Assembly (NCBI GenBank): GCA_002708445.1
Contig: PAOB01000043.1
Location: forward strand, 1 to 35,239
Reading direction: 5' to 3'
DNA from: Candidatus Arcticimaribacter sp.
GTDB taxonomy: Bacteria; Bacteroidota; Bacteroidia; Flavobacteriales; Flavobacteriaceae
DNA: 35,239 nucleotides
Numbering within the stretch: the first letter of the stretch is position 1; every line of letters begins with the position of its first letter. The translations under genes and the position numbers were made by a program. Below, piece by piece: positions 12,040 to 35,239 of this stretch. The notes under the pieces were generated by a model. It had not been told where the DNA came from, did no database searches, and saw only the letters and a list, made by a program, of their open reading frames with translations.

Positions 12040-13431
12040 ATGAAAAAATTTTCCCGCAGATCCTTCATAAAAACCTCATCCCTGTCTGCTGCTGGAATAG
12101 CATCAATCGCACTTTTAAATAATTGTGTAAGTCCAAAAACAGCTTCAAATGGAATATACATGGGAGGGTTTGCAGCACCCAAAATTTCAAATTTACGGGC
12201 TGCTTTCATTGGTGTTGGAGCTCGAGGAGGAAACCACCTTAAAATCTTAGCATCCCTAAACAACACCGAGGTAGTGGCAATTAGTGACCTCTATCAAGAT
12301 AATGTAAACCATTGGAAGAAAATTGCATCAGATATTGGGAAAAGTAATCGTCATCAAAATATTGCAACTTATTTTGGAGATGAAAACTTGTGGAAAACCA
12401 TGCTAAAGGAAGTAAAACCCGATGTGGTTTTTATCGCAACAAATTGGGAAAATCATGCACATATGGCTATTGAAACTATGAAAAGTGGTGCACACTCTTT
12501 CGTCGAAGTACCCATAGCAACTACTTTAGAGGCAATGTGGGAAATTGTACACACCTCAGAAGAAACTCAAAAGCACTGCATGATGATGGAAAATGTCAAT
12601 TACGGAAGAACCGAATTGATGTACCTCAATATGTGTCGCCAAGGAGTTATTGGCGACCTATTACACGCTGAGGCGGCTTACATTCATGATCTGCGTTTTC
12701 AAATGGAAGAACAAGAACGTGGAACAGGATCTTGGAGAACCCATCATTATTCCAAGGGAAAAGGGAACCTCTACCCTACCCACGGGCTTGGACCCGTTGC
12801 TCAATACATGAATATTGCTCGTACAGATGACAATTTCAAAAGTATCGTTTCCTATTCTACTCCTGCAAAGGGCAGAAAATTGTACGCCAAAAAAAACTAT
12901 GCCCCCAATCATAAATGGAACCAACTGGATTATCAAAATGGAGACCTAAATACCTCCATCATCAAAACTCATATGGGAAGAACCATAATGATTCAATGGG
13001 ACGAAACCAGTCCAAGACCCTACACGCGTCACAACCTCATTCAAGGAACCAAAGGTATTCTTGCAGGTTTTCCAACCCGAGTAGCATTAGAAGGAGGCTT
13101 TGAAGGAGTTACCGAAAACCATCATTCATGGATTCAAGGAGAAGCATTGGAACTCCTCTATGAAAAATATGATCATCCCCTTTTTAAACGACTCAATCAA
13201 AAGACTCAAAACAGCGGTCACGGAGGTATGGACGGAATCATGGTAAATCGAATTGTAGAGTGCTTACAGCAAGGTTTACCCCTGGATCAAAATGTGTACG
13301 AAGGTTGTTTTTGGAGTGCAGTAACACCCCTGTCAGCAGCCTCAATAACTCAATACGGAGCCCCACAACAGTTTCCTGATTTTACCCTTGGAAAATGGAA
13401 ACAAACCCTGCCTTTGGGCATTGTAAGTTAA
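12040..13431 (+). CDS. GH109-like protein (Gfo/Idh/MocA fold, Tat-exported lipoprotein), putative alpha-N-acetylgalactosaminidase
   Basis: 463 residues with a twin-arginine signal (SRRSFIK, residues 5-11), a hydrophobic stretch and a possible lipobox Cys29, so it is folded with cofactor before export. The Rossmann loop GVGARGG (58-64) binds NAD. The body matches the GH109 branch: VEVPIATTLEAMW (155-167), ENVNYGRTELM (184-194), RTHHYSKGKGNLYPTHGLGPV (233-253) and IMVNR near the C-terminus. In GH109, NAD-dependent redox catalysis cleaves alpha-linked GalNAc. The conserved Glu156, Tyr188, Tyr245 and His248 correspond to residues expected near the nicotinamide and sugar. Length is near the family norm. 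It is divergent from the kinase-nucleotidyltransferase-symporter unit, hinting at a joint amino-sugar salvage route. Other exported Gfo/Idh/MocA oxidoreductases are the alternative. Confidence 0.78.
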   Translation: MKKFSRRSFIKTSSLSAAGIASIALLNNCVSPKTASNGIYMGGFAAPKISNLRAAFIGVGARGGNHLKILASLNNTEVVAISDLYQDNVNHWKKIASDIGKSNRHQNIATYFGDENLWKTMLKEVKPDVVFIATNWENHAHMAIETMKSGAHSFVEVPIATTLEAMWEIVHTSEETQKHCMMMENVNYGRTELMYLNMCRQGVIGDLLHAEAAYIHDLRFQMEEQERGTGSWRTHHYSKGKGNLYPTHGLGPVAQYMNIARTDDNFKSIVSYSTPAKGRKLYAKKNYAPNHKWNQLDYQNGDLNTSIIKTHMGRTIMIQWDETSPRPYTRHNLIQGTKGILAGFPTRVALEGGFEGVTENHHSWIQGEALELLYEKYDHPLFKRLNQKTQNSGHGGMDGIMVNRIVECLQQGLPLDQNVYEGCFWSAVTPLSAASITQYGAPQQFPDFTLGKWKQTLPLGIVS

Positions 13432-23249: not shown

Positions 23250-23257
23250 TATCTTGA
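23250..23257 (+). promoter_or_regulatory. -7 element candidate for the M20 amidohydrolase gene
   Basis: TATCTTGA resembles the TAnnTTTG element, with ATTG at 23227-23230 as a possible -33 element 19 bp upstream. It overlaps the TTG at 23254 that would be the longest start, which supports the ATG at 23287 as the real one. Confidence 0.35.
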
Positions 23258-23286
23258 AAGCACAAATCAGATTCAAATTTTATGCT

Positions 23287-24705
23287 ATGAAAAATATTCA
23301 ACTTATCCTATGCAGTTTTTTGATGCTAAGTCTTCAGGCTCAAACCAATTACATAACTTTTATGGAAGGCATCGATTCTAAGTCGTCAAAATATTCTGAA
23401 ATAGCACAAACCATATGGAACTACGCCGAAATGGGTTATCAGGAAAAACAAAGCAGCGCACTTCTCAAAAAAACTTTGGCAGACGAAGGCTTTACGTTTA
23501 AAAAAGGAGTTGCTGGAATCCCAACGGCTTTCTCTGCAACTTTTGGAACCAGTGGCCCTGTAATAGCAATCTTAGGAGAATATGATGCCTTACCCGGTTT
23601 ATCTCAAAAAAATGTCCCTTACAAAATATCAAACAACACAAGAGCAGGTCACGGATGCGGCCATCATTTATTTGGAACAGCATCAGCAGCTGCGGCAATT
23701 GCCATTAAAGATTATTTGGAGAAAACCGGAAAACCAGGAACAGTAAAATTCTTTGGATGCCCAGCAGAAGAGGGAGGTTCAGGAAAAGTGTACATGACTC
23801 GTGCCGGTCTTTTTGACAATGCAGATGTAGCCCTACACTGGCATCCCAACAGTAAAAATGCCGCGAATCCAGGAGCAGCACTGGCAAACAAATCAGCTAA
23901 GTTTCGGTTTTATGGTGTGTCCGCTCATGCGGCAGCGGCTCCCGAACAAGGAAGATCAGCACTCGATGCTGTAGAATCTATGAATTTTATGGTCAACATG
24001 ATGCGAGAACACATTCCTTCGAGTGCCCGAATACATTATGTAATTACTCGTGGAGGAGAAGCTCCAAATGTGGTTCCAGATTTTGCCGAAGTGTATTACT
24101 ATGCACGGCACGAACAAAGAGATGTGGTTATTAAAATATTTGATCGGATTGTAAATACAGCCAAAGGTGCAGCTCTTGGAACTGGAACAAGCATGGATTT
24201 TGAAATGATTGGAGGAACACATGAACTATTGCCCAATGAGGTTTTACAAAAATTGATGCACAACAGCCTTACAGAAATTAATGGTTTTAACTACAATAAT
24301 GAAGAAAAAGAATTTGCGGAAAAAATATCCAAAACCCTGGGGAAACCACTAAACATGAAATATGTAAATGGCGTAGAACCCTACGATTCCAATGCTTTAC
24401 CTATGGGATCAACCGATGTTGGAGATGTAAGTTTTATGGTGCCTACCGCAGGAATGGTTGCAGCTACTTGGGTGCCCGGCACCCCAGCTCACAGCTGGCA
24501 AGCAGTTGCTAGTGGAGGAACTTCCATCGGAAATAAAGGCATGATCGTAGCGGCTAAAACCTTGGCTCTAACGGCATTTAAATTGATCGATAATCCAAAA
24601 ATAATAGAAAAAGCTCATGCTGAATTTCTCCAAAAACGAGGGAAAGATTTTAAATACATTCCCCTTTTGGGAGATCGAGATCCTGCTCTAAATTACCGAG
24701 ATTAA
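23287..24705 (+). CDS. M20 family amidohydrolase (AbgB-like), exported
   Basis: About 472 residues from the ATG at 23287. This start opens a clean Sec signal peptide (MKNIQLILCSFLMLSLQAQ); a TTG at 23254 in the same frame is unlikely. The dinuclear metal site is visible as GEYDALPGLS and AGHGCGHHLFG (His and Cys around residues 122-127), followed by CPAEEGGSGK with the catalytic/ligand Glu pair. A lid/dimerisation domain follows (HAAAAPEQGRSALDAVE). The closest named relatives are AbgB, which with AbgA cleaves p-aminobenzoyl-glutamate, and other amide hydrolases. AbgB-type proteins are generally cytoplasmic, so the signal peptide is notable and points to a periplasmic substrate. The gene ends 6 bp from the convergent clpB. 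Confidence 0.88.
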   Translation: MKNIQLILCSFLMLSLQAQTNYITFMEGIDSKSSKYSEIAQTIWNYAEMGYQEKQSSALLKKTLADEGFTFKKGVAGIPTAFSATFGTSGPVIAILGEYDALPGLSQKNVPYKISNNTRAGHGCGHHLFGTASAAAAIAIKDYLEKTGKPGTVKFFGCPAEEGGSGKVYMTRAGLFDNADVALHWHPNSKNAANPGAALANKSAKFRFYGVSAHAAAAPEQGRSALDAVESMNFMVNMMREHIPSSARIHYVITRGGEAPNVVPDFAEVYYYARHEQRDVVIKIFDRIVNTAKGAALGTGTSMDFEMIGGTHELLPNEVLQKLMHNSLTEINGFNYNNEEKEFAEKISKTLGKPLNMKYVNGVEPYDSNALPMGSTDVGDVSFMVPTAGMVAATWVPGTPAHSWQAVASGGTSIGNKGMIVAAKTLALTAFKLIDNPKIIEKAHAEFLQKRGKDFKYIPLLGDRDPALNYRD

Positions 24706-24711
24706 GAATTA

Positions 24712-27297
24712 TTAATTTTTAAAACTCAATTCATTATTCTCAAAATCGATGCTAATTGAATCATTAGCTACAAGTTCTCCCGATAGAATTTTCTTAGAAA
24801 GCTCATTCAATATTTTACGTTGAATTAATCTTTTTATGGGTCGTGCTCCAAATTGAGGTTCATAACCAAGTGCTGCCAAATGGTCAATTACACCATCATT
24901 AAATTCTAAACGAATATTCTTTTTTTCCAGAAGTTCAATCAGTTTTTTTAATTGATGGTTAACTATTTGTCGAACCTCATCTTGGCTTAAAGGAGTAAAC
25001 ATTACAATCTCATCAATTCTATTCAAAAACTCATGTCTTATTGTTTGCTTCAATAAGTTGAGAACCTCCAATTTTGTGTTTTCTAAAACCGTTGATTGGC
25101 TTTTGTTATCGATCTTACCAAGATTCTCCTGAATGATGTGAGCTCCCATATTGGAGGTCATGATGATTATGGTATTCCTGAAATCTGCAACCCTCCCTTT
25201 GTTATCGGTCAATCTTCCTTCATCGAGTACTTGCAACAAGATATTGAACGTATCTGGATGTGCTTTTTCTATTTCATCCAATAGAACAACAGAATATGGT
25301 TTTCTCCTAACGGCCTCGGTAAGTTGCCCACCCTCTTCATAACCAACATATCCGGGAGGAGCTCCAACCAAACGACTGACAGCATGTTTTTCTTGATATT
25401 CACTCATGTCGATTCGGGTCATTGCTCCTTCATCGTTAAATAAAAATTCTGCTAGTGTTTTTGCTAGCTCTGTTTTACCAACCCCCGTAGTCCCCAAAAA
25501 CAAGAAAGTTCCAATAGGTTTTTGGCTATCCTGCAAATCTGCTCGACTTCTTCGAACAGCATCAGCAACAACACCAATGGCCTCGTTTTGTCCAATTACC
25601 CTTTTGTGAAGCTCTTCCTCTAATTTCAATAATTTTAATCGATCACTTTGAAGCATTTTGGAAACAGGAATACCCGTCCATTTGGCAACAACCTCAGCAA
25701 TATCCCCTGAGTCCACCTCTTCTTTTATCAGTGCATTTTCTTGATTTTCTATTAATTTTTTTTGCAATTCATCCAGCAGTTCATGTTCTTTTTGAATTTT
25801 GCCGTAACGCAATTCAGCTACTAAACCAAAATTACCTTCACGTTCAGCTTTATCTGCTGCGCTTTTGAATTGCTCAATATTGGTTTTTACTTTTTGAATT
25901 GAATCTACCAACTCTTTTTCTAATTTCCACTGAGCAAAAATACTTTTACGATTTTCTTTTAAATCAGCGAGTTCTTTTTTGAGGACAGCAATTTTATCTT
26001 TATCGTTTTCTCGCTTAATAGCTTCCAATTCAATTTCACTTTGCATGATTTTTCGATCATAAACATCCAGCTCTTCTGGTTTCGAGTTTATTTCCATTCT
26101 TAACTTTGAGGAAGCTTCATCAATCAAATCAATTGCTTTATCGGGTAAAAATCGATCTGAAATGTAACGTTGAGAAAGTTCAACAGCTGAAATAATAGCA
26201 CTGTCTTTGATCCTTACTTTGTGATGGCTTTCATATTTTCCTTTTATCCCTCTGAGAATTGATATGGAACTTTCCTTATCCGGTTCATCTACCATGACTT
26301 TTTGAAAACGACGTTCCAGCGCTTTGTCTTTTTCAAAATACTTTTGGTATTCATCCAAAGTTGTAGCTCCAATAACCCGAAGTTCTCCACGAGCCAAAGC
26401 TGGTTTCAAAATATTTGCGGCATCCATTGCACCCTCTCCACCTCCAGCTCCCACCAAAGTGTGAATTTCATCAATGAATAAAACTATTCTCCCAGCCCCG
26501 TTTATTACCTCTTTTACTACTGATTTTAAACGTTCTTCAAACTCACCTTTGTACTTTGCTCCGGCAATTAAAGAACTAATATCCAAGGAATAAATTATTT
26601 TGTCTTTTAAATTTTCTGGAATGTCCTCTTTAACTAATCGATTGGCTAAGCCCTCTGCTATTGCAGTTTTTCCAGTTCCCGGTTCACCTATCAAAATGGG
26701 ATTATTTTTATTACGCCTGGATAGAATTTGTAATATTCTTCGGATTTCTACATCTCTTCCAATAACAGGATCTAGCTTTTCATCTAATGCCAATCGATTT
26801 AAATTTCTTGCATATTTATCAAGAGCATTGTAGGTGTCTTCCTGTGTTGGTGAAGTTACTTTTGTGCCCTTTCGTAATTCTTTGATGATGTCTTTTAAGC
26901 CTTTTTGGGTTAATCCAAAATCTTTTAACAATTGTGAAGCACTGTCTTTGGCCTCAATAATCGATAAGATCAAATGCTCAATTGATATGAATTCATCCTT
27001 CATTTTATTTGCAGTTAATTCTGCACCATTTAGTGTCTTTTGAGCATCTAACGATAAGCTTATCGTTCCACCTTGAACTCTTACAAAACTTTGCAAGATC
27101 TTTCCTAGTTTTTGATTGAAAGGCTGAACATCAACACCGGCTTTTTTGAGAATGTAGGGTAAAACATTTTGATCAATTTCTGATATTCCTTTCAGGATAT
27201 GTGCATTTTGAATTTGCTGATGTTCCAATTCAAGACATACTTGTTGCGCTTTTTGGAGCGCTTCCTGGGATTTCAATGTGTATTTATTGTAATTCAT
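24712..27297 (-). CDS. clpB: ATP-dependent disaggregase ClpB (Hsp100)
   Basis: 861 residues, the normal ClpB size. An N-terminal Clp repeat domain (1-145) is followed by AAA+ module 1 with Walker A GEPGTGKT (204-211) and Walker [15 protein letters not shown]. The long coiled-coil middle domain (about 400-530, rich in Lys/Glu) separates ClpB from ClpA/ClpC. AAA+ module 2 has [16 protein letters not shown] and [11 protein letters not shown], then the C-terminal small domain ([21 protein letters not shown]). It works with the DnaK system to pull proteins out of aggregates in the cytosol. There is no ClpP-binding loop evident. It lies 124 bp downstream of the LysR gene on the same strand; I could not find a convincing promoter in that gap. 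Confidence 0.97.
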
Positions 27298-27393
27298 AAA
27301 GTGGGTATTGATTAGAATTTACATTCAAAGAAATCAAAGGATGTACCACAGTTGTTTTGTGTCATTTTGGCGGCTATGTAGCTGTTTATTAAT

Positions 27394-27404
27394 GACATAA
27401 TGTC
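27394..27404. repeat. Short palindrome upstream of clpB
   Basis: GACAT and ATGTC flank a central A in the 124-bp gap between the LysR gene stop and the clpB start. It could be an operator or part of the LysR transcript end. With a one-base centre it cannot form a good hairpin. Nothing else is evident in this gap. Confidence 0.25.
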
Positions 27405-27421
27405 TTTTTTATGAATTTTCT

Positions 27422-28339
27422 TTACTTCATGACATCATCAAAAAGCTGAGTTTTTTCGGAATCAAGCAACTCAATGATGTTGACCAAAGCGGGATTTCGA
27501 TTGTTGCTGTTCCAAACAGCGGATAGAACAGTACGTTGTGGAAGCTGATCCAATTCGATAAATTTTACCCCTTTTGCAGAATTCATTTGTAAAGATTTTG
27601 GAACGATAGAAATCCCTAAATGATGAGTTACCAATTTGTAAATTGTATTTGAATGAATCGTATTGTGAGATACTATTGGAGAAAAACCACTGTCTTTAAA
27701 AAGCTGAAGAACTGTTTGATAATAGGAAGGACTGTACTTTTGATCGAACAAAATAAAAGGTTCGTCTTTGAGCTGCGCCAAGCTCTTAAAATTACTTTGA
27801 TCCAAAGGGTGGTCCTGAGGTAAAACGAGGCAAAAAGGTTCCCTCAATACGGCTCTAAACTCTAGTCCTCGTGGAATATTTTCTAGGCGTACAAATGCTA
27901 AGTCCAGCTCTTGAACCAATAAACCCTCTATTTGCTTTTGATTGTCCATTTCTCTTAAATTGAAGAGTATCTTGGGATGCATCTTTCGAAAGGAGAGCAA
28001 AAGGTCTGGGATGATCTTTTGCATAGCAGATCCCACATATCCTAATTTCAAATTTCCTTGTTTCCCCTGATCAATCAACTTTGTGTGTTCAATAATCTGA
28101 TCCAATTTTCTAAAATAATGGGTCATTTCTCCCTTGAGATATGCTCCTGGAGGAGTCAAAACTACTTTTCGTGTATGTCTGTCGAAAAGTTTAACACCCA
28201 ATTGATTTTCCAATTCTTTGATCTGTTTACTCAATCCCGGCTGGGATATGAATAAGCGCTCTGCTGCTTTTCGAAAATGAAGCTCTTCTGCTACAGCCAA
28301 AAAAAACTGTAAGTGTCGATAACTTAATTGATAATTCAT
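27422..28339 (-). CDS. LysR family transcriptional regulator, probable regulator of the hut operon
   Basis: 305 residues, the standard LysR size. The N-terminal winged helix-turn-helix (about residues 5-65) has RHLQFFLAVAEELHFRKAAERL, then SQPGLSKQIKELENQLGVKLFDR as the recognition-helix region. The rest (about 90-295) is the periplasmic-binding-like effector domain. It is transcribed divergently from hutH with a 77-bp intergenic region holding repeated CTTAT/ATAAG elements. LysR proteins commonly control the adjacent divergent operon and bind the pathway intermediate; for hut genes that could be urocanate or histidine. This is by position and family habit. It is not HutC (GntR family) nor HutP, so the regulator type is less common for hut. 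Confidence 0.9.
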   Translation of the reverse strand: MNYQLSYRHLQFFLAVAEELHFRKAAERLFISQPGLSKQIKELENQLGVKLFDRHTRKVVLTPPGAYLKGEMTHYFRKLDQIIEHTKLIDQGKQGNLKLGYVGSAMQKIIPDLLLSFRKMHPKILFNLREMDNQKQIEGLLVQELDLAFVRLENIPRGLEFRAVLREPFCLVLPQDHPLDQSNFKSLAQLKDEPFILFDQKYSPSYYQTVLQLFKDSGFSPIVSHNTIHSNTIYKLVTHHLGISIVPKSLQMNSAKGVKFIELDQLPQRTVLSAVWNSNNRNPALVNIIELLDSEKTQLFDDVMK

Positions 28340-28349
28340 GATTATTAAT

Positions 28350-28387
28350 CTTATGCTTATATGGTCTTATTAGGTATTAAATATAAG
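28350..28387. promoter_or_regulatory. CTTAT/ATAAG repeat array, probable LysR operator for hut
   Basis: CTTAT occurs at 28350-28354, 28356-28360 and 28366-28370, and its inverse ATAAG at 28383-28387. CTTATAT (28356-28362) and ATATAAG (28381-28387) form a 7-bp inverted repeat. The inner CTTAT and ATAAG are 12 bp apart, with T28370 and A28382 separated by 11 bases as in the LysR T-N11-A box. The array fills the gap between the divergent LysR gene and hutH. Confidence 0.5.
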
Positions 28388-28389
28388 TG

Positions 28390-28397
28390 TAATTTTA
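28390..28397 (+). promoter_or_regulatory. -7 element candidate for the hut operon
   Basis: TAATTTTA, close to TAnnTTTG, ends 19 bp before the hutH ATG and follows the CTTAT/ATAAG array directly. This places the array where an activator of hut would bind, around the -33 region and upstream. Confidence 0.35.
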
Positions 28398-28416
28398 GGT
28401 TAAAATCCTGTACTGA

Positions 28417-29913
28417 ATGAATTTTAATTTTGGATTAGAAAAATTGACATTAAAAAAAGTAATGCAATTGACGGAGGGAACCCGGGCAGGAATCTTACTC
28501 CCTGAGGTAATCGCCAGAATCCAAAAAAGCAATGAAATTGTTCAAAATATCGTTCACTCTAAAAAAGCTGTTTACGGGATCAATACTGGGTTTGGTCCAT
28601 TATGCGATACTCTTATTTCTGCAAAACAAACCAACACACTCCAACGAAATTTGTTGATTACTCATGCGGTAGGAGTCGGTAAACCCATTGATAAAAAGCT
28701 TTCAAAAATCATGATGATTTGTAAGGTTCATGCATTGTGTCAAGGATACTCTGGAATACGCCTAAAAGTGATCGAACGAATTTTGTTTTGTATTGAAAAT
28801 GATTTACTCCCAGTAGTTCCTGAGCAAGGTTCTGTTGGTGCATCTGGTGACTTAGCACCTTTATCTCATCTTTTCTTACCGCTTATTGGAGAGGGAGAAT
28901 TTTGGGTAAACGACAAAATTGTTGCTGCCAAAAAAGTTTTATCTGATCACAATCTAAAACCAATTGTTCTTGAGGCAAAAGAGGGTTTAGCATTAATCAA
29001 CGGGACTCAATTCATACTTGCACATGCTTTAATTGGTTTAGAGAAGATGAATTACTTGCTCGATTTAGCTGATGTTGCAGGAGCCATGAGCCTTGAGGGC
29101 TTCCAAGGGAGTGCTGCTCCGTTTAAGAGTGCATTACATAAAATACGCCCTTTTAAAGGATCACAAAAAGTTGCCAAACGAATGCGCTTACTTCTCAAGG
29201 ATTCTGAAAATTTAAATGCCCATAAAGATTGTGATCGTGTGCAAGACCCGTATTCAATTCGATGCATTCCACAAGTTCATGGAGCCTCACGAAATGCTTT
29301 TTATCATCTCAAAGATCTGGTAACTGTTGAACTCAATGCGGTAACCGACAACCCCATAATTTTAAGTGAAAACGAAATTATTTCGGGCGGTAACTTTCAC
29401 GGGCAACCCTTGGCAATAGCATTGGATTATGCATCTATTGCTGCATCGGAACTGGGAAATATTTCTGATCGCCGCTGTTATCTTTTACTAGAAGGTAAAT
29501 ATGGATTGCCCCGATTACTCACTGAAAAAGGGGGAGTGAATTCTGGGTTTATGATTCCTCAATACACAACCGCAGCACTGGTTACCGAAAACAAATCGCT
29601 TTGTTTTCCTCCCTCTGCTGATAGTGTACCCACCTCTTTGGGTCAAGAAGATCATGTTTCTATGGGAAGTATTTCGGGACGAAAATTCAATCAGATTTTG
29701 GGTAATCTAGAAAAAATCCTCGCTGTAGAATTGATGTATGCTGCACAAGCTTTAGAATTTCGAGGTTCCCACAAATGCTCTGCAATAATCGAAAAAAACC
29801 ATCGCCTCATTCGTTCAAAAGTTCGAAAACTAGAAGAAGATCGACTGCTAAAAAATGACATCCATTCGATGATAAAAATGGTAACTAATCAATCTTTTAC
29901 AGTAAAAAAATGA
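28417..29913 (+). CDS. hutH: Histidine ammonia-lyase HutH
   Basis: 498 residues, the normal size. It converts histidine to urocanate plus ammonia, the first step of the hut pathway, in the cytosol. The MIO cofactor arises from Ala142-Ser143-Gly144 in GSVGASGDLAPLSH, which is intact. Other family blocks are YGINTGFGPL (about 53-62), the QDPYSIRC-type segment here VQDPYSIRCIPQVHGASR (about 270-287) and ISGGNFHGQPLA (about 320). The C-terminal SADSVPTSLGQEDHVSMG is also complete. It is first in the hutHUIG unit and its stop overlaps the hutU start (ATGA), so the two are translationally coupled. Divergent LysR gene upstream. Confidence 0.97.
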   Translation: MNFNFGLEKLTLKKVMQLTEGTRAGILLPEVIARIQKSNEIVQNIVHSKKAVYGINTGFGPLCDTLISAKQTNTLQRNLLITHAVGVGKPIDKKLSKIMMICKVHALCQGYSGIRLKVIERILFCIENDLLPVVPEQGSVGASGDLAPLSHLFLPLIGEGEFWVNDKIVAAKKVLSDHNLKPIVLEAKEGLALINGTQFILAHALIGLEKMNYLLDLADVAGAMSLEGFQGSAAPFKSALHKIRPFKGSQKVAKRMRLLLKDSENLNAHKDCDRVQDPYSIRCIPQVHGASRNAFYHLKDLVTVELNAVTDNPIILSENEIISGGNFHGQPLAIALDYASIAASELGNISDRRCYLLLEGKYGLPRLLTEKGGVNSGFMIPQYTTAALVTENKSLCFPPSADSVPTSLGQEDHVSMGSISGRKFNQILGNLEKILAVELMYAAQALEFRGSHKCSAIIEKNHRLIRSKVRKLEEDRLLKNDIHSMIKMVTNQSFTVKK

Positions 29914-31922
29914 CTCCAAAAACAACTGCATTTGAGGCTCAAATTCTTCAGGGGATCCCAGACAAATTGCCCCCGCAATACATCGCCCCAAAAAATATTA
30001 ATCGAGCACCTAAAAGAAAAGACAGTTTGTCTAAAGAAGAAAAGCAATTGGCAATTCGAAATGCCTTGCGTTATTTCCCCAAACATTGGCATTCTGTTTT
30101 GGGTGAAGAATTTGCAACAGAACTTTTGGACTATGGCAGAATTTACATGTTCCGATTCAAGCCTTCTTATGCTATTTTTGCACGTCCCATTTCAGAATAT
30201 CCTGCTCAATCTATTCAGGCTGCAGGAATTATGCTAATGATTCAAAACAACCTTAATCCAGAGGTTGCTCAACATCCAGAAGAATTAATCACTTATGGAG
30301 GTAATGGTGCTGTTTTTCAAAATTGGGCACAGTACCTAATTACCATGCAATATTTGGCTCAAATGACAGACCAACAAACCCTGCACCTCTACTCCGGTCA
30401 CCCTATGGGTTTATTTCCTTCCTCAAAAGAAGCTCCTCGAGTTGTGGTTACCAACGGGTTGATGATCCCCAATTATTCAAAACCAAACTCTTGGGAAAAA
30501 TTAAATGCCTTGGGAGTTACTCAATACGGTCAAATGACTGCAGGTTCATTTATGTACATTGGTCCGCAAGGGATTGTTCATGGTACTACTATTACCCTTT
30601 TAAATGCCTTTCGAATGATTTTGAGTCCCAAAGAAACTGTTGCCGGGAAGATTTTCCTGACTGCTGGTTTGGGAGGGATGAGTGGCGCACAACCCAAAGC
30701 AGGAAATATTTGTGGATGTATCACGGTCTGCGCAGAAATAAACCCTAAAGCGGCAATCAAAAGACACGAACAAGGTTGGGTAGATGAATTGATTTTCGAC
30801 TTACCGTCTTTAGTCAAACGCATCAAAACAGCACAAAAAAACAATGAAATTGTTTCAATAGCATTCATCGGAAATGTTGTGGACGTTTGGGAATGCTTTG
30901 ACCATGAAAACATTCACGTTCAATTAGGATCGGACCAAACCTCGCTTCACATTCCGTGGACGGGTGGCTACTACCCTGTTGGACTGACTTATGAGGAATC
31001 CAATCAAATGCTTCGTCAGAATCCAGAGTTGTTTAAAAAATACGTGCAGAAGTCCCTAAAGCGTCATGCTGCTGCTGTTCAAAAACACACCGAAAAAGGC
31101 ACTTATTTTTTTGATTATGGAAATGCTTTTTTACTTGAGGCGTCTCGAGCTGGAGCATCGGTAATGGCAGTAAATAAAGTCGATTTTAAGTATCCATCTT
31201 ATGTTCAAGATATTCTAGGCCCTCTGTGTTTTGACTACGGTTTTGGTCCATTCCGATGGGTTTGTGTATCGGGTAAACCAGAAGATTTGGATAAAACAGA
31301 TTCCATTGCTCTTGAAGTGATGCAAGAAATTGAAAAAACAGCCCCTCCCGAAATTAAACTACAAATCCAAGACAACATTAGATGGATTAAGGATGCAAAA
31401 AATAATAAGTTAGTTGTTGGTTCTCAAGCTCGTATCTTGTATGCAGATTCAGAAGGGCGGATAAAAATAGCCCAGGCATTCAATGCCTCCATTGCCAGAA
31501 ATGAAATCGGCCCAATCGTTTTGGGTAGAGATCATCATGATGTAAGTGGAACAGATTCTCCTTATCGAGAAACTTCAAACATTTACGACGGCAGTAAGTT
31601 TACTGCAGATATGGCAATTCACAATGTGATAGGAGACGGTTTCAGAGGTGCGACTTGGGTATCAATACACAATGGAGGTGGTGTTGGTTGGGGTGAAGTT
31701 ATCAACGGTGGTTTTGGAATGTTACTGGACGGTAGTAATGAAGCATCTGAACGGTTAAAAAACATGCTGTTTTATGATGTCAACAATGGAGTTGCTCGCC
31801 GAAGTTGGGCTAGAAACAAAGAGGCTGTTTTTGCAATCAAAAGAGAAATGAAACGAACTCCCAATCTAAAAGTTACTTTACCTAATCTGGTAGAAGATTC
31901 TATCATAAATGAACTTTTTTAA
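29910..31922 (+). CDS. hutU: Urocanate hydratase HutU (long form)
   Basis: 670 residues. It hydrates urocanate to imidazolone propionate using tightly bound NAD+, the second step of the pathway. The family NAD-binding segment is GLGGMSGAQPKAGNICGC (about 253-270), and further strong blocks include LYSGHPMGLFPS (about 155-166), IPWTGGYYPVG (about 348-358) and GGGVGWGEVINGGFGM near the C-terminus. The length is greater than the 555-560 residues of the Bacillus/Pseudomonas enzyme but agrees with the long form found in Bacteroidota and in animals (UROC1). The start overlaps hutH by 4 bp and the stop abuts the hutI ATG. Confidence 0.96.
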   Translation: MTPKTTAFEAQILQGIPDKLPPQYIAPKNINRAPKRKDSLSKEEKQLAIRNALRYFPKHWHSVLGEEFATELLDYGRIYMFRFKPSYAIFARPISEYPAQSIQAAGIMLMIQNNLNPEVAQHPEELITYGGNGAVFQNWAQYLITMQYLAQMTDQQTLHLYSGHPMGLFPSSKEAPRVVVTNGLMIPNYSKPNSWEKLNALGVTQYGQMTAGSFMYIGPQGIVHGTTITLLNAFRMILSPKETVAGKIFLTAGLGGMSGAQPKAGNICGCITVCAEINPKAAIKRHEQGWVDELIFDLPSLVKRIKTAQKNNEIVSIAFIGNVVDVWECFDHENIHVQLGSDQTSLHIPWTGGYYPVGLTYEESNQMLRQNPELFKKYVQKSLKRHAAAVQKHTEKGTYFFDYGNAFLLEASRAGASVMAVNKVDFKYPSYVQDILGPLCFDYGFGPFRWVCVSGKPEDLDKTDSIALEVMQEIEKTAPPEIKLQIQDNIRWIKDAKNNKLVVGSQARILYADSEGRIKIAQAFNASIARNEIGPIVLGRDHHDVSGTDSPYRETSNIYDGSKFTADMAIHNVIGDGFRGATWVSIHNGGGVGWGEVINGGFGMLLDGSNEASERLKNMLFYDVNNGVARRSWARNKEAVFAIKREMKRTPNLKVTLPNLVEDSIINELF

Positions 31923-33164
31923 ATGCAGATACTTTTTAAAAATATCAAGGAGTTAATTCAGGTTCGTGAAAAAACTGAGGTTTTTGTTTCGGGGAAAGCA
32001 ATGAAAACTTTACCCAGTATTCAGAATGCTTATTTACTCATAAAAAAAGGGGTGATTGCAAGCTTCGGCCCAATGACCGATTGTCCTGAATTTGAAGTTG
32101 ATGAAATTGTAGATGCAACAGGAAAAATGATCTTACCCTCTTGGTGCGATTCACACACACATTTGGTTTATGCAGGAAATCGAGAAAGAGAATTTGAGGA
32201 TCGGATCAACGGACTTAGTTACAAAGAAATCGCCGAAAAAGGAGGTGGAATCTTAAATTCAGCAAAGGTTTTAGAAAACACATCTCTAAAAGATTTGTAC
32301 CTCCAAAGTAAAGTAAGACTTGAAGATGTAATGCGTCTGGGTACAGGAGCTATTGAAATTAAATCGGGTTATGGCTTAACACCTAAGTCGGAATTAAAAA
32401 TGTTACGCGTAATCAAGCGTTTACAGAAAGAATATTCCATTCCTATCCGAGCTACTTTTTTGGCGGCTCATGCGGTTCCAAAAGCCTATGAAAACAAGAA
32501 GAAGTTGTTTCTCAAAACAATGTTAGAAGAAACCTTACCCATTATTCAAGCGGAAAATTTAGCTACTGCTATTGATGTTTTTTGTGAAAAGGGTTATTTT
32601 ACCTCTGAAGATACCGCCTATGTTTTAAAAACTGCACAACCTTATGGTCTAAAACCTAAAATTCATGTAAACCAATTTAACGCAATAGGAGGAGTTGCCG
32701 TTGGGGTTCGTTTCAAAGCCCTTTCGGTAGATCACCTTGAACTTATTTGTGATGAGGATTTAGCTGTTTTGGCAGGAAGTAAAACCATTCCAGTTGCTTT
32801 ACCTGGCTGTTCCTTTTTTCTGGGAATACCATACACCCCAGCACGAAAAATATTAGATGCTGGACTTCCTCTGGCTTTGGCTTCGGATTACAACCCCGGA
32901 TCTGCTCCCTCTGGAAACATGAATTTTGTTGTTTCAACAGCATGCGTAAAAATGAAAATGACACCTCAAGAAGTCATCAATGCCGCAACAATCAATGGAG
33001 CTTTTGCAATGGGTGTAGAACAGGAGGTTGGATCAATAACTTTAGGTAAAAAGGCTAACTTAATTTTGACAAAACCCATTCAATCGCTAACTGCACTCCC
33101 GTATTCCTTTGGGTCAAACTTGATTGAAAAAGTTTATGTAAACGGTAAAGCACTAAATAAATAA
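31923..33164 (+). CDS. hutI: Imidazolonepropionase HutI
   Basis: 413 residues, typical length. It opens the ring of imidazolone propionate to N-formimino-glutamate, the third step. An amidohydrolase-fold enzyme: metal ligands His78 and His80 in DSHTHLVYAGNREREFE, followed by the family KGGGI loop. Then come IEIKSGYGLT (about 143-152), a downstream AAHAVP metal His, HVNQF and SDYNPGSAPSGN (about 321-332) with the catalytic Asp. All expected residues are present. It starts immediately after the hutU stop with no gap and is followed by hutG after 2 bp, consistent with a single mRNA. Confidence 0.96.
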   Translation: MQILFKNIKELIQVREKTEVFVSGKAMKTLPSIQNAYLLIKKGVIASFGPMTDCPEFEVDEIVDATGKMILPSWCDSHTHLVYAGNREREFEDRINGLSYKEIAEKGGGILNSAKVLENTSLKDLYLQSKVRLEDVMRLGTGAIEIKSGYGLTPKSELKMLRVIKRLQKEYSIPIRATFLAAHAVPKAYENKKKLFLKTMLEETLPIIQAENLATAIDVFCEKGYFTSEDTAYVLKTAQPYGLKPKIHVNQFNAIGGVAVGVRFKALSVDHLELICDEDLAVLAGSKTIPVALPGCSFFLGIPYTPARKILDAGLPLALASDYNPGSAPSGNMNFVVSTACVKMKMTPQEVINAATINGAFAMGVEQEVGSITLGKKANLILTKPIQSLTALPYSFGSNLIEKVYVNGKALNK

Positions 33165-33166
33165 AT

Positions 33167-34027
33167 ATGGATGCGATTGATCTGAACATCTATGAGCTAA
33201 ACTATGTCCCTCCCAAGCAAGAACTGTGGAAAGGTCGTGCATCTGCTTTAGAACTCAATGTTCAGTATTGGTGTCAACAGATCGAATGCCACAATTTACA
33301 AAACGATTTAACCGCAGTTGAAAAGCCCCATTTTGCAATCATCGGATATGCTTGTGATGAGGGAGTAAGACGAAACCAAGGGAGGGTTGGCGCTAAAAAT
33401 GGGCCGGAGGCTATTCGAAAACAACTGAGCCGTTTTGCCTTCAATCATCCTCCGAAAAGAATAATAGACTTTGGGAATATTATCCCTGTTGAAGAGGATA
33501 TGGAAAGCTGTCAAGCTGCACTTGCTCGGGTTACAGAACAGTTGCTCTCACAAAATATTTTTCCAATCGTATTGGGTGGAGGACACGATGTTGCCTTTGG
33601 ACATTTTATGGGAATTGAACGAGCCATCCAAAAAAGAGGAATTCATTCCATAGGAATCATCAACTTCGATGCGCATTTTGATTTACGCCCTTCAAAAGAA
33701 CAGCCCAATTCAGGCACTCCATTCTATCAAATTCTTAACGGATATAAAAACAGTGTGGCCTATTTTGTCTTAGGTATCCAAACTGCTGCAAACAGCCCTC
33801 AATTATTTGAAATTGCTAAACAGAAAGGGGTAAACTACCTGTTGAATAATGTTTGTGAGCCTAGTTCGATAATGGAAGTCAAAAATCAACTAGATGCATT
33901 CATTCAGCAGCACGACTACCTTTATGTAACTATTGATTTAGACGGTTTTTCTTCCGCCTATGCTCCGGGGGTTAGTGCCTCTTCTCCGCTAGGATTTTCT
34001 CCATCTTTTGTCTTTGATCTTTTATAA
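33167..34027 (+). CDS. hutG: Formimidoylglutamase HutG, truncated by an in-frame TAA
   Basis: An arginase-superfamily enzyme for the last hut step (N-formimino-glutamate to glutamate plus formamide). The manganese ligands are intact: His140 in GGGHD, Asp168/His170/Asp172 in NFDAHFD, and Asp257/Asp259 in TIDLDGF. The reading frame stops at codon 287 (TAA, 34025-34027), giving 286 residues against about 310-330 for the family. Directly after the stop the same frame runs on for 43 codons of recognisable HutG C-terminus to a TAA at 34157-34159. The missing part includes the D-x-A-E-L-N-P block, whose Glu contacts substrate in arginases. The 286-residue product is therefore probably inactive unless the stop is read through, or unless the TAA is a sequence error. 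Last gene of hutHUIG, 2 bp after hutI. Confidence 0.85.
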   Translation: MDAIDLNIYELNYVPPKQELWKGRASALELNVQYWCQQIECHNLQNDLTAVEKPHFAIIGYACDEGVRRNQGRVGAKNGPEAIRKQLSRFAFNHPPKRIIDFGNIIPVEEDMESCQAALARVTEQLLSQNIFPIVLGGGHDVAFGHFMGIERAIQKRGIHSIGIINFDAHFDLRPSKEQPNSGTPFYQILNGYKNSVAYFVLGIQTAANSPQLFEIAKQKGVNYLLNNVCEPSSIMEVKNQLDAFIQQHDYLYVTIDLDGFSSAYAPGVSASSPLGFSPSFVFDLL

Positions 34028-34159
34028 CACCTTTTCCAAACCCAAAAAATTGTTGCTATGGATTTAGCCGAATTGAATCCCAAATTTGACCGAGATGACA
34101 CCACTGCTCGATTAGCTGCTCATCTTTTGGATGCTGTAGTTGGTATGAAAAACTTTTAA
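34028..34159 (+). pseudogene. hutG: C-terminal remainder of hutG downstream of the in-frame stop
   Basis: 43 codons plus TAA, in the same frame as hutG. The translation reads HLFQTQKIVA, then MDLAELNPKFDRDDTTARLA, then AHLLDAVVGMKNF, which is the usual end of HutG/ureohydrolase proteins (D-x-A-E-x-N-P, D-x-x-x-x-T-A-x-L-A-A). No frame change is needed to join it to the upstream part. No obvious independent start: an in-frame ATG exists just before GATTTAGCC, but the fragment would not fold alone. Confidence 0.8.
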
Positions 34160-34217
34160 CCAATAAGTTCAAATACAAAAGAATTCGGATTATCTTAGCT
34201 CAGTTTAAAAAAAAATT

Positions 34218-35219
34218 ATGATCAATAAAAAACAACTTTTATCCCAACGTCCCAAAGGAATGCCAAACGAATCAACCTGGAGCTTTGTAGAAGAAACTGT
34301 AGCTCCACTCAAGGATGGTGAAATTCTCGTTGAACAAAGTCATATTTCGCTTGACCCAGCAATGCGGGGGTGGATGAACGACAGTCGTTCTTACATTCCT
34401 CCAGTAGAAATTGGAGAAGTAATGAGAGCCGGGAGTGTAGGGAAAGTTATTGAGACAAAAGGAGATACCAAATTCAAAGTCGGAGATTATGTAAGTGGCT
34501 GGGGTGGAGTACAACAGTATTATGTAGGAGACGGGAATGGATTTGTTCAAGTCGATCCAAATTGGGCAGATATCACTCGGTATTTGGGTGTTTTGGGAAT
34601 GCCCGGAATGACAGCATACTTTGGAATTCTGGAAGTTGGCGAAATCAAAGAAGGTGATGTGGTATTGGTTTCGGGAGGAGCAGGAGCAGTTGGTTCTGTT
34701 GTAGGTCAGATTGCAAAAATCAAAGGCTGTCGTGTGATTGGTATTGCAGGAGGTCCCGAAAAATGTACTTACATGACCGAAGAACTCGGTTTTGACGGTG
34801 CCATAGACTACAAAAATGAAAATGTAATCTCAGGAATAAAACAACATTGCCCCAAAGGGATTGATGTTTATTTCGATAATGTTGGAGGTGATATCCTCGA
34901 TGCAGCTTTAATTTTTATCCGAAAAAATGCACGTATTGTAATCTGTGGAGCCATTTCACAATACAACAATACAACTGCTGTACAAGGACCCAAAAACTAC
35001 ATGTCTCTTTTAGTTAACAGGGGTTCTATGAAAGGAATGGTTGTTATGGATTATGCTCCAAAATACCGTGATGCAATGAAAGAAATGGCGCAGTGGATTG
35101 ATGAAGGAAAACTCAAAGCAAAAGAAGACGTTTACGAAGGGATTGAAAACTTTAGAGAAACTTTTTACCGTTTGTTCAATGGTGATAAACTGGGGAAACT
35201 GGTGCTAAAAATAAAGTAA
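34218..35219 (+). CDS. NADP-dependent oxidoreductase, MDR superfamily (CurA/LTB4 dehydrogenase-like)
   Basis: 333 residues, the typical size of zinc-independent medium-chain reductases. An N-terminal GroES-like domain has LVEQSHISLDPAMRGWMND (about 38-56), the hallmark of the leukotriene B4 12-hydroxydehydrogenase / CurA group. A Rossmann domain follows with VSGGAGAVGSVVGQIAK (about 152-168), YFDNVGGDILD and AQWIDEGKLKAKE near the C-terminus. Members reduce alpha,beta-unsaturated ketones and aldehydes with NADPH. Cytosolic, no signal peptide. It is separated from hutG by 58 bp with no shared operon sign; TATCTTAG at 34191 is a weak -7-like element. Role probably in detoxification of enones; specific substrate unknown. 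Confidence 0.92.
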   Translation: MINKKQLLSQRPKGMPNESTWSFVEETVAPLKDGEILVEQSHISLDPAMRGWMNDSRSYIPPVEIGEVMRAGSVGKVIETKGDTKFKVGDYVSGWGGVQQYYVGDGNGFVQVDPNWADITRYLGVLGMPGMTAYFGILEVGEIKEGDVVLVSGGAGAVGSVVGQIAKIKGCRVIGIAGGPEKCTYMTEELGFDGAIDYKNENVISGIKQHCPKGIDVYFDNVGGDILDAALIFIRKNARIVICGAISQYNNTTAVQGPKNYMSLLVNRGSMKGMVVMDYAPKYRDAMKEMAQWIDEGKLKAKEDVYEGIENFRETFYRLFNGDKLGKLVLKIK

Positions 35220-35228
35220 TTAACATTT

Positions 35229-35239
35229 ATGAAACGCCG
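35229..35239 (+). CDS. Possible start of the next gene (cut by window end)
   Basis: ATG AAA CGC follows the oxidoreductase stop by 9 bp and runs off the window. Too short to identify; only its position suggests a gene start. Confidence 0.2.

What the first reader, a model, noticed from the sequence alone, without database searches (positions are those of the whole stretch)
33167..34159. In-frame TAA interrupts hutG while the frame and C-terminal motif beyond it remain intact
Seen: codon 287 (34025-34027) is TAA, and the next 43 codons in the same frame encode the family C-terminus (M-D-L-A-E-L-N-P...T-A-R-L-A-A) to a TAA at 34157. There is no frameshift and no decay. Known: in the arginase superfamily the Glu of the D-x-x-E-x-N-P block contacts the substrate guanidinium/formimino group, so a 286-residue product should be impaired. 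Inference: a very recent nonsense mutation, a sequencing or assembly error, strain heterogeneity, or stop readthrough (the base after TAA is C, a weak termination context in E. coli). The other three hut genes are intact, so loss here would stall the pathway at formimino-glutamate.
Basis: partly seen in the sequence, partly recalled or inferred. Interest (0 to 1): 0.65.

Follow-up and report, generated by a model that had tools for sequence, protein, structure and literature searches.

The report
Recent nonsense mutation in hutG
One letter change has put a stop signal near the end of an otherwise normal histidine-breakdown gene in a flavobacterium; it looks like a very young broken gene, or an error in an incomplete genome, and not a new mechanism.

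Summary
Codon 287 of hutG (34025-34027) is TAA, and 43 open codons of the family C-terminus follow before the usual stop. The five congeners with the whole gene read a sense codon there; the nearest (G016, 88% identical) has AAA, so one A-to-T change explains the stop. Of 109 loci aligned there, the window's own included, only the window has a stop. The gene shows no decay: on the window's lineage hutG has 31 synonymous and 15 non-synonymous changes besides the stop, a balance like that of hutH, hutU and hutI. The stop is very recent (about the last 15% of that branch or less, rough model) or not real. It removes the last core strand, the C-terminal helix and invariant D299, E302, N304, P305 and D308, so the product should be dead. 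Nothing supports readthrough: RF1 is intact, none of 23 typed tRNAs is a suppressor (tRNA set incomplete), and no other interior stop was seen in 112 compared ORF pairs. The genome is 65% complete. Without reads, mutation and error cannot be separated. Ordinary finding.

The parts
33167..34027 (+). hutG as interrupted: 286-residue ORF of a formimidoylglutamase
34025..34027 (+). in-frame TAA at codon 287; AAA in G016, AAG in G001 and G007, AAT in G012
34028..34159 (+). 43 further codons of the HutG C-terminus plus the normal TAA stop; holds K294, D299, E302, N304, P305, D308, A314, L316, invariant in 37 aligned proteins
28417..29913 (+). hutH, histidine ammonia-lyase, unbroken
   Evidence: TIGR01225 599.4 bits, cut-off 539.15
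29910..31922 (+). hutU, urocanate hydratase, unbroken
   Evidence: TIGR01228 403.8 bits, cut-off 375
31923..33164 (+). hutI, imidazolonepropionase, unbroken
   Evidence: TIGR01224 395.5 bits, cut-off 298.15
27422..28339 (-). divergent LysR-type regulator next to hutH; same divergent pair in G016, G007, G001 (cut by the end of the stretch taken) and G012

Best explanation
An ordinary hutG, last gene of a hutHUIG operon, has taken one recent base change (Lys codon AAA to TAA at codon 287) in this lineage or in the sequenced strain. Translation stops after 286 residues; the C-terminal strand, helix and active-site Glu block are missing, and the enzyme is most likely inactive. The rest of the gene has not had time to decay. 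Shown: the base difference, the intact relatives, the constraint on the lineage, the residues lost. Inferred: that the change is in the living cells, and that the product is dead.
For: Sense codon in the five congeners with the whole gene, AAA in the nearest. Only 1 of 109 loci aligned at this residue has a stop, the window itself. Window-lineage hutG changes are 31 synonymous to 16 non-synonymous with the stop counted, against 97 to 46 in hutH, hutU and hutI together (Fisher p 0.86). A rough model rejects more than about 15% of the branch without constraint at about 0.05. The operon looks dispensable in the genus: hutU and hutG are over cut-off in the same 6 of 19 genomes, own included. The cut lies in helix 279-291 and removes strand 295-301 and helix 312-327 of a model with mean pLDDT 93.
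Against: The assembly is 65.48% complete in 55 contigs, and a single base without reads cannot exclude an error. Full constraint is also what an error would show. Such stops are rare here: this is the only interior one among 112 compared ORF pairs.
Confidence: 0.58

Rival explanations
1. The stop is not in the dominant genome: a consensus or assembly error, or a minority strain variant picked up if the genome was assembled from a mixed sample (its origin was not given to me).
For: Fragmented, 65%-complete genome; no decay around the stop; one occurrence in 112 ORF pairs; interruptions also occur in the relative G016 (an M20 peptidase frameshift and a broken GH109-like gene).
Against: The change is a base substitution, not an indel; the other 22 window ORF pairs with G016 show no interior stop, one has a stop 3% from its start.
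Confidence: 0.36
2. The stop is real but is read through or suppressed, so that some 330-residue enzyme is made.
For: The gene is still under the same constraint as its neighbours; residue 287 is very variable in relatives (K, R, E, N, Q, S and others), so an inserted residue might be tolerated; the base after TAA is C.
Against: RF1 is present and unbroken. None of 23 typed tRNAs of 24 found reads UAA, but the set lacks several normal tRNAs (no Gln or Trp, for instance), so this is weak. TAA ends 80 of 114 other sampled ORFs, five of them TAAC, and the gene's normal stop is TAAC too. No relative has a stop here. No Rfam element in 27000-35239.
Confidence: 0.04
3. The 286-residue protein is itself a working enzyme or has taken a new role.
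For: H140, D168, H170, D172, D257 and D259, metal ligands as I recall the family, lie before the stop, and the truncated protein still passes the hutG cut-off.
Against: Invariant D299, E302, N304, P305, D308 and the last core strand are gone; no aligned homologue has a stop here.
Confidence: 0.02

Closest known systems
Formimidoylglutamase HutG, arginase superfamily (TIGR01227, PF00491; closest solved relative 1xfk)
   Same: Family score, place after hutI, full C-terminal block present in the same frame
   Different: In-frame TAA at codon 287, where relatives have a sense codon
Young single-mutation pseudogenes, and false premature stops in draft genomes (kinds recalled, not from a call)
   Same: One substitution, frame and constraint intact, operon patchy in the genus
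   Different: Nothing distinctive; which of the two it is cannot be tested without reads

Membership tests
HutG formimidoylglutamase (TIGR01227) | Score over the curated cut-off (229.15 bits) | tested here: met
   283 bits read through, 235.9 bits truncated
HutG formimidoylglutamase (TIGR01227) | Complete C-terminal D-x-x-E-x-N-P block in the translated ORF | tested here: not met
   The block lies after the TAA; so the gene is a hutG, its 286-residue product an incomplete HutG
HutG formimidoylglutamase (TIGR01227) | Place in a hut operon | tested here: met
   hutH-hutU-hutI-hutG order, same in G016, G007, G001 and G012
HutG formimidoylglutamase (TIGR01227) | Enzyme activity | not testable with these tools
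   No assay
Recent pseudogene | Disabling change absent from close relatives | tested here: met
   AAA, AAG, AAG, AAT in G016, G001, G007, G012
Recent pseudogene | Change present in the organism's DNA (reads, isolate) | not testable with these tools
   No reads and no second genome of the species at hand
Programmed stop readthrough / recoding | Stop conserved in relatives | tested here: not met
   1 of 109 loci aligned there, the window itself
Programmed stop readthrough / recoding | Suppressor tRNA or damaged release factor | tested here: inconclusive
   None among 23 typed tRNAs, RF1 unbroken, but the genome is 65% complete and its tRNA set partial

The most novel reading that the evidence does not exclude
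The UAA at codon 287 is read through at a useful rate in this species, giving a short and a full HutG, with the variable helix position 287 tolerating the inserted residue.
Probability: 0.02. Interest if true: 0.45.

Novelty: new member of a known kind. Interest (0 to 1): 0.1.

Why it matters
If real, it catches a hut operon at the first step of loss in a genus where 6 of 19 genomes hold it. It also shows a practical trap: the truncated ORF still passes the hutG cut-off (235.9 against 229.15), so annotation by that model would call the pathway complete. It does not bear on a long-standing open question.

Tried and rejected
Considered and rejected: a natural shorter HutG (109 of 110 loci align on past residue 300, none but the window with a stop); general recoding of TAA (TAA ends 80 of 114 other sampled ORFs and no second interior stop was seen in 112 pairs); relaxed selection before the stop (window lineage 31:16, G016 lineage 22:17, Fisher p 0.38; sites where the outgroups disagree were dropped); rescue by another arginase-family gene (the homologue on contig C49 is an arginase, TIGR01229 243.6 bits over its cut-off, and 82.8 bits for hutG); rescue by FtcD or N-formylglutamate amidohydrolase (found in none of 19 genomes, own included; each search rang in 1 of its 14 control genomes). 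A hutG piece in G002 is at a contig end (17890-18027 of 18029), so it is not decay.

Led nowhere: pattern scan of viral contigs around the stop, 0 matches; Rfam scan of 27000-35239, 0 matches; four paper searches, of which I saw the listings only and noticed no such case; of two papers I saw passages (PMC10028609; PMC5373646).

Limits: one search kept the best 80 of 581 confirmed relatives. The alignment used 36 of the other loci then held, chosen by me. marks one TAA inside the G053 match; my alignment of that locus shows none up to residue 322 and I did not pursue it. In the reverse comparison one 130-residue ORF has a stop 12% from its start in G016; not pursued. The first form of this report counted hutG's own premature stop in the TAA and open-tail figures; one search gives them without it.

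Full report
Check of the observation. The frame 33167-34159 reads 286 codons, TAA at 34025-34027, 43 codons, and TAA at 34157-34159. The gene is formimidoylglutamase hutG: 283 bits to TIGR01227 when read through, 235.9 when truncated, cut-off 229.15. It follows hutH, hutU and hutI, all over their cut-offs and unbroken. A LysR-type regulator stands divergent upstream. Regulator and hutHUIG stand in the same order in G016, G007, G001 and G012 (the regulator of G001 is cut by the end of the stretch taken); the oxidoreductase gene downstream was found beside hutG in G016, G007 and G001, not in the G012 stretches taken.

Relatives. The window lies in a genome of 1,557,090 bases in 55 contigs, 65.48% complete. 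I take it to be a member of the Flavobacteriaceae, because a locus of that title (L001) is 80% identical and its contig has the length of the G001 contig in the same genus. HutG is over the family cut-off in 6 of 19 genomes of the genus, own included, and hutU in the same 6, so the operon is patchy; many of these genomes are incomplete, so some absences may be gaps. At codon 287 G016 has AAA, G001 and G007 AAG, G012 AAT; G018 has Asn. Of 110 loci held, 109 align at this residue and on past residue 300; the exception is L102, 29% identical. The residue is variable (K 37, R 17, E 10, N, Q and S 7 each, others), and the single stop is the window itself. 91 of the 110, the window included, are at least 40% identical; the rest are more distant relatives of the query. 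Some loci appear twice under two names (L001 and L083, L002 and L086, judged by equal contig lengths).

Age of the stop. With G001 and G007 as outgroups, the window lineage has 31 synonymous and 16 non-synonymous changes in hutG, the stop being one of the 16; the G016 lineage has 22 and 17 (Fisher p 0.38). For hutH, hutU and hutI together the window lineage has 97 and 46 (p 0.86 against hutG). Sites where the outgroups disagree or fit neither were dropped. After the stop the window lineage has 6 synonymous and 1 non-synonymous, too few to test alone. A simple mixture model rejects more than about 15% of the branch without constraint at about the 0.05 level; the model is rough. HutG is the least conserved of the four against each of the four relatives compared, so its 88% identity to G016 is not a sign of decay; 24 of 112 compared pairs are at or below 88.5%.

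Base rate. I compared 661 ORFs of at least 100 residues (overlaps removed) from 784,990 bases of G016 with 394,238 bases of the own genome, window included. 112 found a partner of at least 70% identity; the others did not, and only parts of both genomes were taken. Four pairs hold a stop in the aligned stretch; three of these stops lie within the first 7% and look like over-long starts; hutG is the only interior one. In the reverse direction, among 115 pairs, G016 has an M20 peptidase split by a frameshift and a broken GH109-like gene, besides stops within the first 12% of three further ORFs. Isolated interruptions are thus seen in both genomes.

What is lost. In 37 aligned proteins K294, D299, E302, N304, P305, D308, A314 and L316 are invariant and lie after the stop. 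The AlphaFold2 model of the read-through protein (mean pLDDT 93.0) puts residue 287 in helix 279-291; strand 295-301 and helix 312-327 follow. The closest solved relative by sequence, 1xfk, aligns over residues 19-321. A 286-residue product is expected to be inactive (inference).

Readthrough. RF1 is present and unbroken. Of 24 tRNA matches in the genome 23 could be typed and none reads UAA; several normal tRNAs are missing from this list, so the test is weak. Leaving hutG out, TAA ends 80 of 114 sampled ORFs with a G016 partner, five of them TAAC; the normal hutG stop is TAAC too. Passages of PMC5373646 say that the fourth base affects termination in E. coli, and that readthrough is rare relative to frameshifting in bacteria, the readthrough cases named in its discussion being at UGA. 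I see no support for readthrough here, though it is not excluded.

Back-up. FtcD and N-formylglutamate amidohydrolase were found in none of the 19 genomes; the other arginase-family gene examined in the own genome is an arginase. HutF was not searched. If the stop is real, formiminoglutamate would be the expected end point (inference).

Verdict. One recent point change, or an error in one base of an incomplete genome. Reads decide; none are available here.

Noticed in passing
window 23254-24705; L138 8590-10037: The M20-family peptidase, one 483-residue frame in the window, is split by a frameshift near residue 119 in the relative G016.
   Followed up: partly
window 12040-13431; L137 17390-18771: The GH109-like oxidoreductase gene is whole in the window and in G007 (90% identity), but in G016 it matches in several frames, with 3 stops in one stretch and only 48% identity over the first 253 residues.
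   Followed up: partly
window 33167-34027: The truncated HutG still passes the TIGR01227 cut-off (235.9 against 229.15 bits), so annotation by that model would not flag the loss.
   Followed up: yes
genus of the window (19 genomes, own included): The hut operon is patchy: hutU and hutG over cut-off in the same 6 of 19 genomes, plus a contig-end hutG piece in G002.
   Followed up: partly
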